Assembly (NCBI GenBank): GCA_025359915.1 | Contig: JANYDE010000103.1 | Span: 1-64,000, forward strand | Origin: Chamaesiphon sp. 336R_metabinner_41 | Lineage (GTDB): Bacteria > Cyanobacteriota > Cyanobacteriia > Cyanobacteriales > Chamaesiphonaceae | DNA length: 64,000 bases | Direction of reading: 5' to 3' | Shown: positions 15,255 through 58,880 of the stretch, piece after piece | Layout of the letters: every line of letters begins with the position of its first letter | Numbering within the stretch: position 1 is the stretch's first letter | Made by a program: the position numbers and the translations under genes | The notes under the pieces: generated by a model | The model's input: only the letters and a program-made list of their open reading frames with translations | Told to the model about the DNA's origin: nothing | Databases searched by the model: none

Positions 15255-15272
15255 GTATCCTCGCAGTTTGTA

Positions 15273-15343
15273 GGGGTGCCCTGTCTTGTCGTTTTTTTAT
15301 GCGGGGGGAACCCCCGCATAAAAACGCCGCTTCATGGGTACCC
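15273..15343. repeat. Two-stem structured repeat, copy 1
   Basis: Outer stem GGGTGCCC (15274-15281) pairs with GGGTACCC (15336-15343). Then come unpaired TGTCTTGT and GCCGCTTCAT, and an inner stem running from CGTTTTTTTATGCGGGGG to CCCCCGCATAAAAACG. A second copy at 49160-49241 keeps the unpaired segments but has different bases in both stems. It also sits just downstream of ndk and could end transcription. Confidence 0.75.
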
Positions 15344-16472: not shown

Positions 16473-16500
16473 TTTTCCTACGGAAAGGCTCCGCCAACAA
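16473..16500 (+). repeat. 28-bp stem-loop repeat, covarying copy
   Basis: TTTTCC-TAC-GGAAA followed by GGCTCCGCCAACAA. The stem bases differ from the other copies (TTCTCC/GGAGA) but still pair. ACTATCA heptamers flank it at 16457-16471 and 16498-16525. Confidence 0.65.
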
Positions 16501-16867: not shown

Positions 16868-17145
16868 AAAGTAATTAATCTTAAAGTTTGCAGCTAAACC
16901 TGAACGTTAACCGATCGACAGGAGCTTCGTCAACCGCACTAACCCATACGAGCAATGTTTATTCAGTACCGGATTTAGCTAAAGATCCTCAATTTTAGGT
17001 ATAAAGCTTCTTTCTACCTTTGACTACGGCTAATCTACTGAATGTTCCCAGCGATGGGAGATGGGAGCACCTTTTCAAGACAGAGAAGATGAGAAGATAT
17101 AGAACAGGGGGGAATGGTTGTTTTACTTAGCCGCTTAGTACTAGC

Positions 17146-34054: not shown

Positions 34055-36337
34055 ATGTCTCCAGTTGTTGTTGGTGCTAGCCGTTTTGCGACTGCTCTGG
34101 AAACAGGGACAGCAAAACTTTGGGTGCTATTAATTGGGGTTAATCAATATCAAGATATTACTTTTCCCCCGCTCAGATATGCGGCAATAGATTGTCAGGG
34201 AATTGGTACGGCATTGGCAGCGGCGACAGATCCGTTTCCCAATAAAGAATTTTTGATTCACCACGATCTGGTTGCCCAAACTCCGAAATTGGCAACAGTA
34301 GAGTCCAGCTTACACCGAGTGGTGAGAGAGGCAAAAGTTCAAGATACGATCTTGATCTATTTTTCGGGACATGGGGTGGTCGAACCGATCGGGCAGCAAA
34401 CTGTTTTATGTTTATATGATACCGATCGTGAACACTTATTAAGTACTGGCTTGCCAATTCAGGTTGTGCTGGATATGTTGCGGCATTGTGCGGCGCACAG
34501 TCAATTATTGTGGTTGGATGCTTGTCATAGCGGCAATATGCGATCGCCAGATCAGTCTTCTCGACTGAAAATGGGGACAGAAATCGATCATCATCAATCA
34601 CTCAATCAAAACTGGAAAAACCGACTCAATCCTACAACACAACTACTATCTTCACTTCGCCAAGCGGTCAGCAATCGGGGGTTTTATGCTTTATTATCTT
34701 GTGACGAAGGGCAACAGTCATGGGAATTTCCCGATCTCGGCCATGGGGTATTTAGTTACTATCTGATGCGCGGCTTGGGTGGGGAAGCCGCAGATGATCA
34801 GGGAATTATTGATGCGGATGGTTTATATCGATATGTGTATCGGCAAACGATGCAGTATATCGACAGGACTAATCAGCAGGTAAGATTGGCAAATCAAGTC
34901 AAACGAGAGCGCGGGGAAATGAGTTGTGCGCCTGAGTATTCACCCCAAACACCGAAGCGGATCGTGTCTGGGGTGGGCGAAATTATTTTAGGGATTAAGT
35001 CTCCGGCTGTTTTCAGCCAGCCAGATCGATCTGCGTTGATTATCGATGGCGGGAAAGAAGAGATCCGTAGCGAGTTGGATACCCTCAGTCATGTGCTAGC
35101 GCAAGAGGGGAAATTTACACTCGATCGTTTTCCCGTAACTAGTGGTACCTCATTGGTATCTTTATCAGCAGTTGAAGATCGGATTCAAACCTTTCTCCGT
35201 GGCGGTGTCGTGCAGGGAGAAAGGTTCTCCAGAGGAGAGGCTCCGCCAACGACTCAACCACCCTCGACACGCTTATTGTACCTGCGGGGGCAGATTGGCA
35301 ATCTTGGGGGTAAAGATGCTGGATTAGTCATGGGGGATGGGATCAAATTGAGCCGGACTTGGTTGGGTCAAAAATTAAACCAATCTAGTCACAACCAGCA
35401 AATCCTGATCGTTGATGCTCCAGGTGCTACCGCTACTACTGAATGGGTAGAAGCTCTAAAAATGGTAGCGGGGAATCTCTGTATCATTGTTTGTGCCGCT
35501 CCTGTCGAAGATCCCGAACTATTTATTCAAGTATTAATCGAAGCTCTGATTTCCGCTCCACCCCAAGTTGGCGTGCCTGTTGTGAGCTTATTCACTCGAT
35601 TGCAAACTACTTTAGATGCGCTGGGAATTTCCTGCGATCTATTCCTCTCTGGTACTCAAGGATTAATTGAAATTGTCCCCGCAGCGGAGATCGAGCAGAT
35701 TGAGTTACCGCCGGAAATAATTATTCAGACAGAAATATCTGCCCCGCCAGACAATCTCAGATTTTCCGCAGCATCAGATATCACATTTGGGCAAGACAGC
35801 ACTTATCTTCAACCAGTGCAGGAAAAGATCCCAGTATCTTCCAGCATTTCTCAAGATAGCTTAGAATCAATTTTATCAAGATTAGTAGGACCGATCGCGT
35901 CAACCTTAATTAAGCGTGCTCAAGCCAAAGATATCACGACCACGATCGACAATCTACGGCTGATGTTACCGTCGCAATTTAAAGATACATTCGATCGACA
36001 AGTTCAGGCATTACTGGTAAAACCACCTGTCCCAACCCCACAAAAACGCGAACAGCAGGTGCTAGAAACAACTGTATCACATCCATCTTTCTACGTTGCC
36101 AGTGGTCGTGGAATTTCAGCACCGCCACATGTGGGCATCGATGAGTCTGCGTTCCGGGCCTATGAGCATGAGTTGAATTTGGCGATCGGACCGATATCGA
36201 AGTTCATTGTTAATAGTACCCGCAAAGCGCATCCTCAGATATCTGCACCAGATTTGATTGCTGTTTTAGCTAGCAATATCACTGATCCAAATCGAGCCGA
36301 TTTATTTCGACAGAAATGTCGAGATCTATTTGAGTGA
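34055..36337 (+). CDS. Caspase-like (peptidase C14) protein with two copies of a GPI(A/S) domain
   Basis: 760 residues. The p20-like caspase fold spans 20-290 with catalytic H106 in FSGHG and C157 in DACHSG, so it should be active as an orthocaspase. A middle part (about 330-560) is another alpha/beta region that I do not recognise, containing a 28-bp repeat translated in frame near 390-400. Two copies of a small domain follow: LESILSRLVGPIASTLIKRA (about 605) and HELNLAIGPISKFIVNST (about 700 to the end). The same domain ends the Ser/Thr kinase at 41164-42492. Cyanobacterial orthocaspases are proposed in stress and cell-death signalling. Confidence 0.87.
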   Translation: MSPVVVGASRFATALETGTAKLWVLLIGVNQYQDITFPPLRYAAIDCQGIGTALAAATDPFPNKEFLIHHDLVAQTPKLATVESSLHRVVREAKVQDTILIYFSGHGVVEPIGQQTVLCLYDTDREHLLSTGLPIQVVLDMLRHCAAHSQLLWLDACHSGNMRSPDQSSRLKMGTEIDHHQSLNQNWKNRLNPTTQLLSSLRQAVSNRGFYALLSCDEGQQSWEFPDLGHGVFSYYLMRGLGGEAADDQGIIDADGLYRYVYRQTMQYIDRTNQQVRLANQVKRERGEMSCAPEYSPQTPKRIVSGVGEIILGIKSPAVFSQPDRSALIIDGGKEEIRSELDTLSHVLAQEGKFTLDRFPVTSGTSLVSLSAVEDRIQTFLRGGVVQGERFSRGEAPPTTQPPSTRLLYLRGQIGNLGGKDAGLVMGDGIKLSRTWLGQKLNQSSHNQQILIVDAPGATATTEWVEALKMVAGNLCIIVCAAPVEDPELFIQVLIEALISAPPQVGVPVVSLFTRLQTTLDALGISCDLFLSGTQGLIEIVPAAEIEQIELPPEIIIQTEISAPPDNLRFSAASDITFGQDSTYLQPVQEKIPVSSSISQDSLESILSRLVGPIASTLIKRAQAKDITTTIDNLRLMLPSQFKDTFDRQVQALLVKPPVPTPQKREQQVLETTVSHPSFYVASGRGISAPPHVGIDESAFRAYEHELNLAIGPISKFIVNSTRKAHPQISAPDLIAVLASNITDPNRADLFRQKCRDLFE
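35225..35252 (+). repeat. 28-bp stem-loop repeat inside the caspase-like gene
   Basis: TTCTCC-AGA-GGAGAGGCT then CCGCCAACGA, read in frame as FSRGEAPPT. Its family is described in the findings. Confidence 0.75.
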
Positions 36338-40425: not shown

Positions 40426-40477
40426 ACTATCACTCAAGTAGGGGCAATTCATGAATTGTCCCTACTTGAGCGATAGT
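40426..40477. repeat. Long near-perfect palindrome
   Basis: 26-bp arms beginning ACTATCACTCAAGTAGGG, with two mismatches and no loop; the centre is CAATTCATGAATTG. The core GTAGGGGCAATTCATGAATT is a repeat type I recall as widespread in cyanobacterial intergenic DNA. Confidence 0.75.
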
Positions 40478-46071: not shown

Positions 46072-46388
46072 AAATATACTCCGCACTTTAACCGCTAAAC
46101 CACTAAACCACTAAACCACTATTCACTCTAGATGTCTAATTTGATACTGAGAAGGGGCGTAAATGCATAGTTGTTGTACAGCTTGGGCAAGTCAGATGTT
46201 ACTGTAAATGCAGATACATTTGGCTTGATTTTTATGAACTACGAGAAATTGAATCCTAGAAGATCGATCGCTAGTTAACTACAATCCCCAGCCAAAGGCG
46301 ATAGAGTAACTATCAACTGCTTGGTGCGCTAAACCGTCGGTTTCGAGCATCCGCTATCAACTATCAACTATCAACTATCAACTAATCT
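46072..46388. other. Repeat-rich intergenic region before the ExbB-like gene
   Basis: CTAAACCA octamers (about 46095-46120), the third copy of the 31-bp element (46128-46158) and ACTATCA heptamers (about 46349-46383) occupy most of it. No gene or clear promoter is visible. Confidence 0.6.
46128..46158 (+). repeat. 31-bp dispersed element, copy 3
   Basis: CTAGATGTCTAATTTGATAC plus the next 11 bases resemble 19868-19898 and 25429-25460. Confidence 0.5.
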
Positions 46389-49159: not shown

Positions 49160-49241
49160 GGGTAAGGGTAATGTCTTGTCGGTTTTTTTATTCGGAGGGA
49201 ACCTCCGAATAAAACCGCCGCTTCATGAATTACCCTTACCC
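49160..49241. repeat. Two-stem structured repeat, copy 2
   Basis: Outer stem GGGTAAGGGTAAT (49160-49172) pairs perfectly with ATTACCCTTACCC (49229-49241). Unpaired TGTCTTGTC and GCCGCTTCATGA are kept from copy 1, while the inner stem is GGTTTTTTTATTCGGAGG against CCTCCGAATAAAACC. The outer stem also supplies the TPR gene stop codon. Confidence 0.8.
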
Positions 49242-56591: not shown

Positions 56592-58325
56592 TTAAGGATT
56601 TCGCTTGCTTTCTTGCCAGATATTACCAATTCCTTTGATGACACCTCGACCGATCAAACCAATCCCACGACCAATAATTTCTGTTAGTAGATAAACAATA
56701 CTACTACCAATAAATGTGGTTGCCATTTTCAATCGAGGTGAGAGTGCATCTCTTGTTTCTAGAGCTAAAGTCACTACTAAGGGAATTCCAGCTAATTGCG
56801 ATAATTCTTGGGGCCGAGGGGCGTAAATAGCGATGCGATCGATCCCATAAGCTGTAAAGATAAATAATCGATATTTACTGTCAAATATAGCCTGCGGTTC
56901 GCCAATATATCGATCGATTCGATACCGCCAAGACAAGTCATTTCGGAATCTTTCGATCTCTCGACTGGAGAGTAAGCTGCGATCGTAAAATCTAGATTTA
57001 ATTGATTCTAAGTTACCAAACCGATTGAGTAAAGGTTGCATGACAGCATTTGCCATCTGGATTGTCAAATTTTCTAAGAGAATACAGGCACGATCTTCAG
57101 ATGTCTGACTACCTGCATCGCTAACAGTATTATCAATCGCTAATGGTACTTTGAATAGTAAGTAATTTAACAGTTCGGTTGATTGTGGAATTTTAGCCAG
57201 AATTTCGGTTTGGATTGTAGCCGCATCTTGAAGGATGACAGGGATAATTTCAATATGACTACTATCGATCGATAGGGTATGATATCTACCAAAAAAATCT
57301 GTCAAGATTGATGCCCATAAGTCAATCAAGATCGTTTGCTGTTTTGCTGACAACTGTTCGATAGTGACTTGGGAAAATCGTAATTCATTTAATAGTCCCT
57401 CGAACTGCTTCAGAATCAAATAAAATAATTCTTGCTTCTTTTCTTGGCGTAAAATATCGATTTCTAATGCGATTGGTGTGAGATTTGTTAGTCCAGATTG
57501 TAATTTAGCAGCGATGCGTTCAAATAGTGTCTGCGCTTGGAAATTTGATTGGCTAGATTCAGCTAGTGGCGATGGAACTAATTGAGAGATTGATGGACTA
57601 GCATCGAGATGCGAGCCAGTTGGAGTTGTACCTGGGAATAATTGTTGAACTAGCCACCGAGCGGTAGTTAGTTCGCGTTTACGTCCGGTTAAAATTAATC
57701 GATTTAACCCAGAAAGTCGCTCCTCTCGGTTAGAAGCAACAGGTAGATTGAGATTAGTATTTAGTCTTGCTAAAGTGGTATCAATTTGCTGAAGACTAGC
57801 TAATCGCAATCTATCAATTAAATTACCCTGTTGAGTTGCTGTTCCGACTGTCACCTGTGCTAAAACTGTTGGTACCCAACTTCCTTCTCCTGCTACAACG
57901 GCTCGAATCCCTGCGACTAAATCTAAAATCGAACTACCGCGCAGACAACAGCCCTCAATTCCCAATTGAAATGCAGTAGTTAAATCTCGATCCTGGGGAG
58001 AACTGAGCAGCAAGATTGGTAAGTTTGGATATTGAGTTTTTACTTGTTGACAAAACTCTAGACTCGATCTATCTTTGAGCGGATGATGTAATGGTAATCC
58101 CAATAAGATTAGATCGATTCTCCAAAGGAGAGGCTTCGACAACGAGTCTATTTCAGCACCTGAATTTGTCAGAATTTGCCAAGCACTCGCAACATTCTCA
58201 GCTTCCGCAGATACCTGTAAATCTGGAAACCGATTCAAGCAAGTAACTAATCCTGAAAGTATGACTGGATCTGATTCGATCGTTAGAATGTGGATCGATC
58301 GATCTAAAATCGGCGTTTCTGCCAT
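56592..58325 (-). CDS. DUF3685 protein with a degenerate receiver domain
   Basis: 577 residues. The N-terminus is a receiver-like domain (SIHILTIESDPVILSGLVTC ... FPDLQVSAEAENV), but the usual phosphoaspartate region is broken: NSGAEIDSLSKPLLWRIDLI includes a translated 28-bp repeat, then LGLPL lacks the aspartate. The remaining 400 residues match DUF3685, helical with YLLTEIIGRGIGLIGRGVIK near the end suggesting membrane contact. It is followed by ycf20, with which it may share function at the thylakoid. Confidence 0.75.
   Translation of the reverse strand: MAETPILDRSIHILTIESDPVILSGLVTCLNRFPDLQVSAEAENVASAWQILTNSGAEIDSLSKPLLWRIDLILLGLPLHHPLKDRSSLEFCQQVKTQYPNLPILLLSSPQDRDLTTAFQLGIEGCCLRGSSILDLVAGIRAVVAGEGSWVPTVLAQVTVGTATQQGNLIDRLRLASLQQIDTTLARLNTNLNLPVASNREERLSGLNRLILTGRKRELTTARWLVQQLFPGTTPTGSHLDASPSISQLVPSPLAESSQSNFQAQTLFERIAAKLQSGLTNLTPIALEIDILRQEKKQELFYLILKQFEGLLNELRFSQVTIEQLSAKQQTILIDLWASILTDFFGRYHTLSIDSSHIEIIPVILQDAATIQTEILAKIPQSTELLNYLLFKVPLAIDNTVSDAGSQTSEDRACILLENLTIQMANAVMQPLLNRFGNLESIKSRFYDRSLLSSREIERFRNDLSWRYRIDRYIGEPQAIFDSKYRLFIFTAYGIDRIAIYAPRPQELSQLAGIPLVVTLALETRDALSPRLKMATTFIGSSIVYLLTEIIGRGIGLIGRGVIKGIGNIWQESKRNP
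58118..58145 (+). repeat. 28-bp stem-loop repeat inside DUF3685
   Basis: TTCTCC-AAA-GGAGAGGCTTC then GACAACGA on the plus strand. The gene reads it in frame on the minus strand as SLSKPLLWR. Confidence 0.7.
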
Positions 58326-58852: not shown

Positions 58853-58880
58853 TTCTCAACCTGAGAGGCTCCGCCAACGA
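58853..58880 (+). repeat. 28-bp stem-loop repeat (intergenic)
   Basis: TTCTCA-ACC-TGAGAGGCT then CCGCCAACGA. The stem has TCTCA/TGAGA, a further covarying form. Confidence 0.7.

What the first reader, a model, noticed from the sequence alone, without database searches (positions are those of the whole stretch)
15273..15343. Two-copy structured element with conserved loops and covarying stems
Copy 1 (15273-15343) and copy 2 (49160-49241) both have an outer stem, unpaired TGTCTTGT(C) and GCCGCTTCAT, and an inner stem with a GAA-type apex. The unpaired parts are nearly identical. The stems differ: the inner arm is TATGCGGGGG in copy 1 but TATTCGGAGG in copy 2, each with its own complement, and the outer arms are unrelated but paired in each. 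Compensating change in stems with conserved single-stranded parts suggests selection on structure. It could be a mobile hairpin of the kind recognised by a Y1-type transposase, a REP-like element or an RNA.
Basis: seen in the sequence. Interest (0 to 1): 0.75.

Follow-up and report, generated by a model that had tools for sequence, protein, structure and literature searches.

The report
Tiny mobile hairpins in cyanobacterial palindromes
The two look-alike structures are small repeated palindromes (REPs) that have each been invaded, at their tip, by a second mobile hairpin of about 49 bases, which is scattered about a hundred times through this cyanobacterial genome and cuts in at precise C|T positions; this makes the old question of how such very small repeats move open to a direct test.

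Summary
Each copy has two layers. The outer stem is a REP of the GTAG type, the family tied to RAYT transposases; more than 40 empty copies of one class lie in the same genome. The inner part, TGTCTTG-[stem]-CGC, is a separate 47-53 nt element. About 103 copies were found in this Chamaesiphon genome, only about 20 of them in REPs. The others lie in terminator-like palindromes, heptamer repeats, other copies of themselves (both orientations) and unique sites. Stems covary strongly; the loop ends are nearly invariant. Related species show the same site without REP, with an empty REP, or with REP plus insert. One related species carries a 48-nt in-frame copy inside a gene whose seven orthologues are uninterrupted. 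Boundaries are C|TGTCTTG...CGC|T (sometimes |A). That is the dinucleotide at which TnpA-REP enzymes cut single-stranded DNA, so movement by a Y1/HUH enzyme in trans is the likeliest mechanism. No dedicated enzyme was found. The element resembles the SDRs described in Nostoc, and related copies occur in other cyanobacteria. Most likely a new variant of a known kind; identity with a named SDR family could not be checked.

The parts
15270..15281 (+). Left arm of host REP, class C (GTAGGGGTGCCC), starting 15 nt after the ndk stop codon
   Evidence: empty copy GTAGGGGTGCCCTTCATG at C81:32662 and tandem copies beside RAYT genes (L161/L167/L169)
15282..15330 (+). Inserted hairpin element, copy 1 (49 nt): TGTCTTG (unpaired 5' foot) - stem-loop - CGC
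15331..15343 (+). Right arm of host REP, class C (TTCATGGGTACCC)
49160..49171 (+). Left arm of host REP, degenerate class A (GGGTAAGGGTAA), 8 nt after the stop codon of the large acetolactate synthase-type gene (ilvB)
   Evidence: orthologous site in G006 holds an empty REP GGAGGGGCAATTCATGAATTGCCCCTTC
49172..49221 (+). Inserted hairpin element, copy 2 (50 nt): TGTCTTG - stem-loop - CGC
49222..49241 (+). Right arm of host REP (TTCATGAATTACCCTTACCC)
40438..40465 (+). Empty class A (double-foot) GTAG-REP: GTAGGGGCAATTCATGAATTGTCCCTAC; the un-invaded state of the copy 2 host
46318..46354 (+). Related mini-element of the TGCTTGG...CCGC type inserted at C|T in a CTATCAA heptamer repeat
   Evidence: (sequence), sister elements
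17064..17082 (-). Truncated copy of the TGTCTTGAAAAGGTGCTC subtype next to CTCCCAT repeats

Best explanation
Each copy is a RAYT-associated GTAG-REP carrying, at its tip, an insertion of a separate non-autonomous mobile hairpin of about 49 nt. SHOWN: the unit TGTCTTG-stem-CGC is inserted without visible duplication into many unrelated hosts, at C|T or C|A in most sites; its stems covary while its ends stay fixed; it nests in itself and occurs in a gene that is uninterrupted in related species. INFERRED: it moves as folded single-stranded DNA. A Y1/HUH enzyme (RAYT, TnpA-REP or IS200-like) acting in trans recognises the hairpin and its 5' GTCTTG foot, cuts between C and T at both ends, and joins it to a C|T in another single strand. 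Loops at the tips of REPs and terminators, and unstable heptamer repeats, would be favoured because they are easily exposed as single strands. The REPs themselves are spread by RAYTs.
For: About 103 copies in the own genome. Empty and filled forms of the same REP classes in one genome. Orthologous sites without REP, with empty REP and with filled REP. 48-nt in-frame insertion in a glycosidase-like gene of G004 against 7 uninterrupted orthologues. Nested insertions in both orientations. Covariation: 23 two-sided changes, 0/500 shuffles reach it; on a set mostly from other cyanobacteria 33, again 0/500. Flank base before the element is C in 37 of 54 distinct contexts (P about 3e-12) and the base after is T 48, A 6, never G/C; the same C|T bias in other genomes (20/29 C, 24/29 T). 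TnpA-REP cuts ssDNA at C|T, and the Marinomonas Mb enzyme also at CA (PMC8266576). RAYTs with NHxH / WQ / YIxNNP motifs flanked by the same REPs, matching subclass 2.4 with double-foot REPs (PMC6006769).
Against: No Y1 gene is flanked by the inner element, and no larger carrier with the same ends was found. In the own genome the class A RAYT has a premature TGA, and no class B/C RAYT was seen in it. In the simple guide model a foot ending in TG would select CA rather than CT, yet CT dominates. Class A REPs are entered at A|T and class D at G|T. Stem excess around insertion sites is modest (16.5% against 3.2% with at least 6 bp) and largely due to REPs.
Confidence: 0.6

Rival explanations
1. 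The inner element is an SDR in the sense of Elhai et al. 2008, moving by an RNA intermediate or an unknown route rather than by a Y1 enzyme.
For: Contexts agree with that paper as I remember its abstract (hairpins with compensatory changes, nesting in themselves, tandem heptamers, confinement to a subgroup of cyanobacteria). Heptamer hosts and nesting. SDR5 inserts precisely in HIP1 (PMC4390886).
Against: SDRs are given as 21-27 nt, these are 47-53. Nothing here shows an RNA step: no Rfam match and no target duplication. The C|T rule at both ends is explained more simply by DNA cleavage.
Confidence: 0.2
2. The inner element is moved in trans by a recombinase with a CT core, such as an IS110/IS621-type enzyme guided by a bridge RNA, known to insert in REPs.
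For: The element is flanked by CT on both sides (C|TGTCTTG..CGC|T), and IS621 and others insert in REPs (PMC1525189).
Against: IS110-type insertion needs a specific target of about 10 or more bases (general knowledge), whereas these hosts share only C|T. It would not require covarying stems.
Confidence: 0.08
3. It is only a loop variant of the REP, spread with the whole REP by RAYT, as in long self-complementary REP loops of Bradyrhizobium.
For: REP loops with long complementary inner parts exist (PMC3733652). The CGG-stem subtype sits mostly in class A REPs, so REP plus insert may also spread as a unit.
Against: Four REP classes carry the same unit at one position, and about 80 of 103 copies are outside REPs; another lies in a coding sequence of a related species.
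Confidence: 0.05
4. It is a functional RNA or a transcription terminator at gene ends.
For: Both window copies lie 3' of genes, and some host palindromes look like terminators (L006 site).
Against: No terminator T-run after the stems; the scan around copy 1 finds no terminator for the full structure. No Rfam match. Insertions in genes, in heptamers and in itself do not fit a gene-end function.
Confidence: 0.05

Closest known systems
Small dispersed repeats (SDRs) of Nostoc punctiforme (Elhai et al. 2008, Genome Research 18:1484)
   Same: Very small, hairpin with compensatory changes, precise insertion, nesting, heptamer tandem repeats as hosts, restricted to cyanobacteria
   Different: Reported as 21-27 nt; here 47-53 nt with fixed TGTCTTG and CGC ends. 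REP tips as hosts are not described in what I recall or could read. Identity with a named SDR family not checked because the paper is not in the library
GTAG-REPs and REPtrons, TnpA-REP subclass 2.4 with double-foot REPs (PMC3733652, PMC6006769)
   Same: The outer palindromes: GTAG at the 5' end and CTAC at the 3' end, G-C stem bottom, around RAYT genes with NHxH, WQ and YIxNNP motifs
   Different: The inner element lacks GTAG, has GTCTTG as its foot, and is not associated with a RAYT gene
Insertion sequences that target REPs (IS1397, ISKpn1, IS621, ISPsy8 and others; PMC1525189)
   Same: A mobile element inserted at one fixed point of a REP; ISPsy8 sits at the symmetry axis
   Different: Those carry transposase genes; this one is about 49 nt without genes and also inserts elsewhere
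IS200/IS605 family
   Same: Hairpin ends, foot sequence 5' of the hairpin, precise insertion without target duplication, ssDNA chemistry
   Different: No transposase or second hairpin; target rule C|T instead of a tetra- or pentanucleotide

Membership tests
GTAG-REP superfamily (outer palindrome) | GTAG at the foot of a 20-40 nt palindrome | tested here: met
   GTAGGGGYAATTCATGAATTRCCCCTAC, 49 pattern matches per strand (palindromic pattern) in the own genome against 3 for the reversed control
GTAG-REP superfamily (outer palindrome) | Association with a RAYT gene, often as inverted REPs | tested here: met
   L161/L167/L169 (classes B and C), L162/L176 (class A), L154/L156/L160/L165 (class D)
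TnpA-REP subclass 2.4 | NH[IFV]H, WQ and YIxNNP motifs and double-foot REPs | tested here: met
   MPNHFH/NHIH (some NHLH), WQRNYY, YIINNP/YIQNNP proteins; class A REP has GTAG...CTAC; compared with PMC6006769. No tree was built
SDR (inner element) | Sequence match to one of the eight published SDR families | not testable with these tools
   Paper not held; no relevant held paper contains the sequences searched
SDR (inner element) | Length 21-27 nt | tested here: not met
   47-53 nt in most copies; the size range is from memory of the abstract
SDR (inner element) | Nesting, heptamer hosts, precise insertion, covarying hairpin | tested here: met
IS200/IS605 or RAYT substrate (inner element) | Cleavage at C|T by a Y1 enzyme | tested here: inconclusive
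   Boundaries fit C|T; the enzyme itself cannot be tested here
IS200/IS605 or RAYT substrate (inner element) | Y1 gene flanked by the element | tested here: not met
   No Y1 gene within the fetched flanks except REP-linked ones; the search for carriers was not exhaustive
Known structured RNA (Rfam 15) | Match to a curated family | tested here: not met
Intrinsic terminator | G+C-rich stem followed by a T run | tested here: not met

The most novel reading that the evidence does not exclude
A class of mobile element consisting only of one folded single-stranded hairpin of about 49 nt, moved in trans by a RAYT-like HUH enzyme and using the exposed loops of REPs, terminators and its own copies as landing sites, would give the long-missing mechanism for very small dispersed repeats of cyanobacteria and would place SDRs and REPs in one enzymatic system.
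Probability: 0.35. Interest if true: 0.75.

Novelty: new variant of a known kind. Interest (0 to 1): 0.52.

Why it matters
How repeats far shorter than any transposon move has been unexplained since they were described. The exact C|T boundaries found here point to a testable enzyme chemistry, the same cut that purified TnpA-REP makes. The many insertions, in defined hosts and with known empty states, give ready substrates. The element can also add an in-frame peptide to a protein and turns gene-end palindromes into compound structures, so it shapes both genes and intergenic regions.

Tried and rejected
My first genome pattern had the two halves in the wrong order and found nothing. The wide scan of genome contigs gave 107 stretches of which only the Chamaesiphon (and one unnamed cyanobacterial bin) ones are real; the rest are about the chance number for so loose a pattern and show no stem. 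I looked for an autonomous carrier by scanning Y1 loci for both ends and by an HMM of the RAYTs over module loci: none. I considered a 1-nt target duplication of T; sites followed by A and the REP empty sites show that the unit is TGTCTTG..CGC inserted before T or A, with the coding insertion one base shorter. The automatically folded covariance model R1 has a poor stem (14 pairs), so its bit scores rest partly on sequence; hand-drawn structures were used for the pair counts. Plasmid hits in Nostocales share the inner part but often lack the TGTCTTG end, so they were used as support for relatives only. Two apparent hits in the structural scan (one in L067, one long one in L261) are chance or truncated.

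Full report
WHAT IS THERE. The window lies in a draft genome of a cyanobacterium; in a named collection the same element is found only in Chamaesiphon records and one unnamed cyanobacterial bin, and all nine genomes that the tool places in the window's genus carry it. Both reported structures are present and fold much better than shuffled sequence. The exact two-ended pattern occurs 14 times in the genome, with none for the reversed control.

TWO LAYERS. In the same genome the 28-nt palindrome GTAGGGGYAATTCATGAATTRCCCCTAC occurs more than 40 times without insert, and two other palindromes, GTAGGGGTGCCC-TTCATGGGTACCC and GTAGGGGCGGTGC-TTCATGCCCGCCC, also occur empty (one search shows their left halves through TTCATG). 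The reported structures are these palindromes with 49-50 nt inserted exactly before TTCAT. The outer arms of the two copies are unrelated because they belong to different REP classes. The insert is TGTCTTG, a stem-loop, and CGC.

OUTER LAYER. These palindromes begin with GTAG, and the symmetrical class ends with CTAC. They lie, often as inverted pairs, beside Y1 transposase genes of the RAYT type in the genus. The proteins carry NHxH, WQ and YIxNNP motifs, as given for TnpA-REP subclass 2.4, which is abundant in cyanobacteria and has double-foot REPs (PMC6006769). GTAG-REPs in cyanobacteria were catalogued by Di Nocera et al. (PMC3733652). This layer is known biology.

INNER LAYER. A scan for TGTCTTG, a paired stem and CGC in 676 kb of fetched Chamaesiphon DNA finds 102 distinct cases against 0-2 for scrambled motifs. 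A covariance model finds about 103 full-length copies in the own genome, a few of which are degenerate or belong to the sister family with TGCTTGG ends. About 20 are in GTAG-REPs. Others sit in GCCCCC|TTTACAAGGGGG palindromes, CTCTGCG repeats, tandem heptamers such as CTCCCAT and CTAAACCA, other copies of the family in either orientation, and unique sites. Stem sequence differs greatly between subtypes while the ends do not. On 21 Chamaesiphon copies 97.6% of cells pair, with 23 two-sided changes against 5.5 in shuffles; sliding the partners destroys this. On 17 copies, 15 of them from other cyanobacteria, 83% pair with 33 two-sided changes against 8.3.

MOBILITY. For copy 2 the orthologous site in G006 has an empty REP and in G004 a variant REP. 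For two further sites of the own genome, related species show an empty REP or none. For copy 1 none of the seven related genomes compared has even the REP. In G004 one copy lies inside a glycosidase-like gene; the reading frame continues through it, adding 16 residues between LKP and TAGKN, while seven orthologues are uninterrupted (the gene name is my reading of the sequence). A second in-gene copy lies near the end of a TnpB gene in G002.

BOUNDARIES. In 54 distinct contexts of the own genome the base before the element is C 37 times (A 8, T 8, G 1; P about 3e-12), and the base after it is T 48 times and A 6 times (the model itself favours T there, so the second figure is partly selected). 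In other cyanobacteria the figures are C 20 of 29 and T 24 of 29. So the unit is C|TGTCTTG...CGC|T. Purified TnpA-REP enzymes cut ssDNA at C|T, and one also at CA (PMC8266576).

SPREAD. A class-wide search finds the model in 12 further genomes of 291, nine of them in the same order. The TGTCTTGRAAAG..CTTTYCGC subtype is in 16 of 386 genomes of the phylum, all in the same order. Related hairpins occur on Nostoc, Fischerella, Tolypothrix and Trichormus plasmids.

MECHANISM. Shown: separate element, precise insertion, structural constraint, C|T rule. Inferred: ssDNA transposition by a Y1/HUH enzyme acting in trans, with exposed loops as preferred targets. Not shown: the enzyme. No Y1 gene is flanked by the inner element, the class A RAYT of the own genome is interrupted by a stop codon, and the simple guide rule would favour CA over CT. 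Preference for hairpin tips is visible (16.5% of sites with at least 6 bp flanking stems against 3.2% of random T sites), but REP hosts drive much of it.

COMPARISON AND NOVELTY. Contexts and nesting agree with the small dispersed repeats of Nostoc (Elhai et al. 2008, recalled, not held). The length differs, and sequence identity could not be tested. The element is absent from Rfam, and the sequences searched occur in no relevant held paper. I rate it a new variant of a known kind, with the C|T rule and the invasion of REP tips as the new points.

Noticed in passing
L154, L156, L160, L165 (Y1 loci): A fourth REP class (GTAGGGGCGGGTTTATGC) surrounds RAYT genes in long inverted arrangements, a clear REPIN/REPtron organisation in Chamaesiphon.
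   Followed up: partly
L273/L176 (G000:C155:68909) and L162 (G003): The class A RAYT is interrupted by a TGA in the own genome but open in G003; both carry an in-frame PVGVASPAENRVS stretch that looks like another inserted repeat.
   Followed up: partly
window 16473-16500, 35225-35252, 58118-58145, 58853-58880: Another dispersed hairpin repeat (TTCTCC..GGAGAGGCTCCGCCAACGA), also found inserted in stems of the main element (e.g. L243, L249).
   Followed up: no
G000:C129:7115-7138 (L265): GTAGGGGCAATGTCTTGCCCCTAC: a REP whose tip holds only TGTC(TTG), perhaps a deletion remnant or a precursor of the filled form.
   Followed up: no
G000:C82:8512-8559, C106:11741-11788, window 46318-46354: A sister family with ends TGCTTGG...CCGC, also inserted at C|T in palindromes and heptamers.
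   Followed up: partly
L059, L069, L096, L233 (same site in G003, G005, G004, G001): One REP site that looks orthologous carries different stem subtypes of the insert in different species, suggesting repeated insertion or replacement.
   Followed up: no
L352, L353 (plasmids of Nostoc and Gloeothece), L149 (G002): Three related hairpins lie near the 3' end of TnpB-like genes; an in-frame insertion is clear only in L149.
   Followed up: partly
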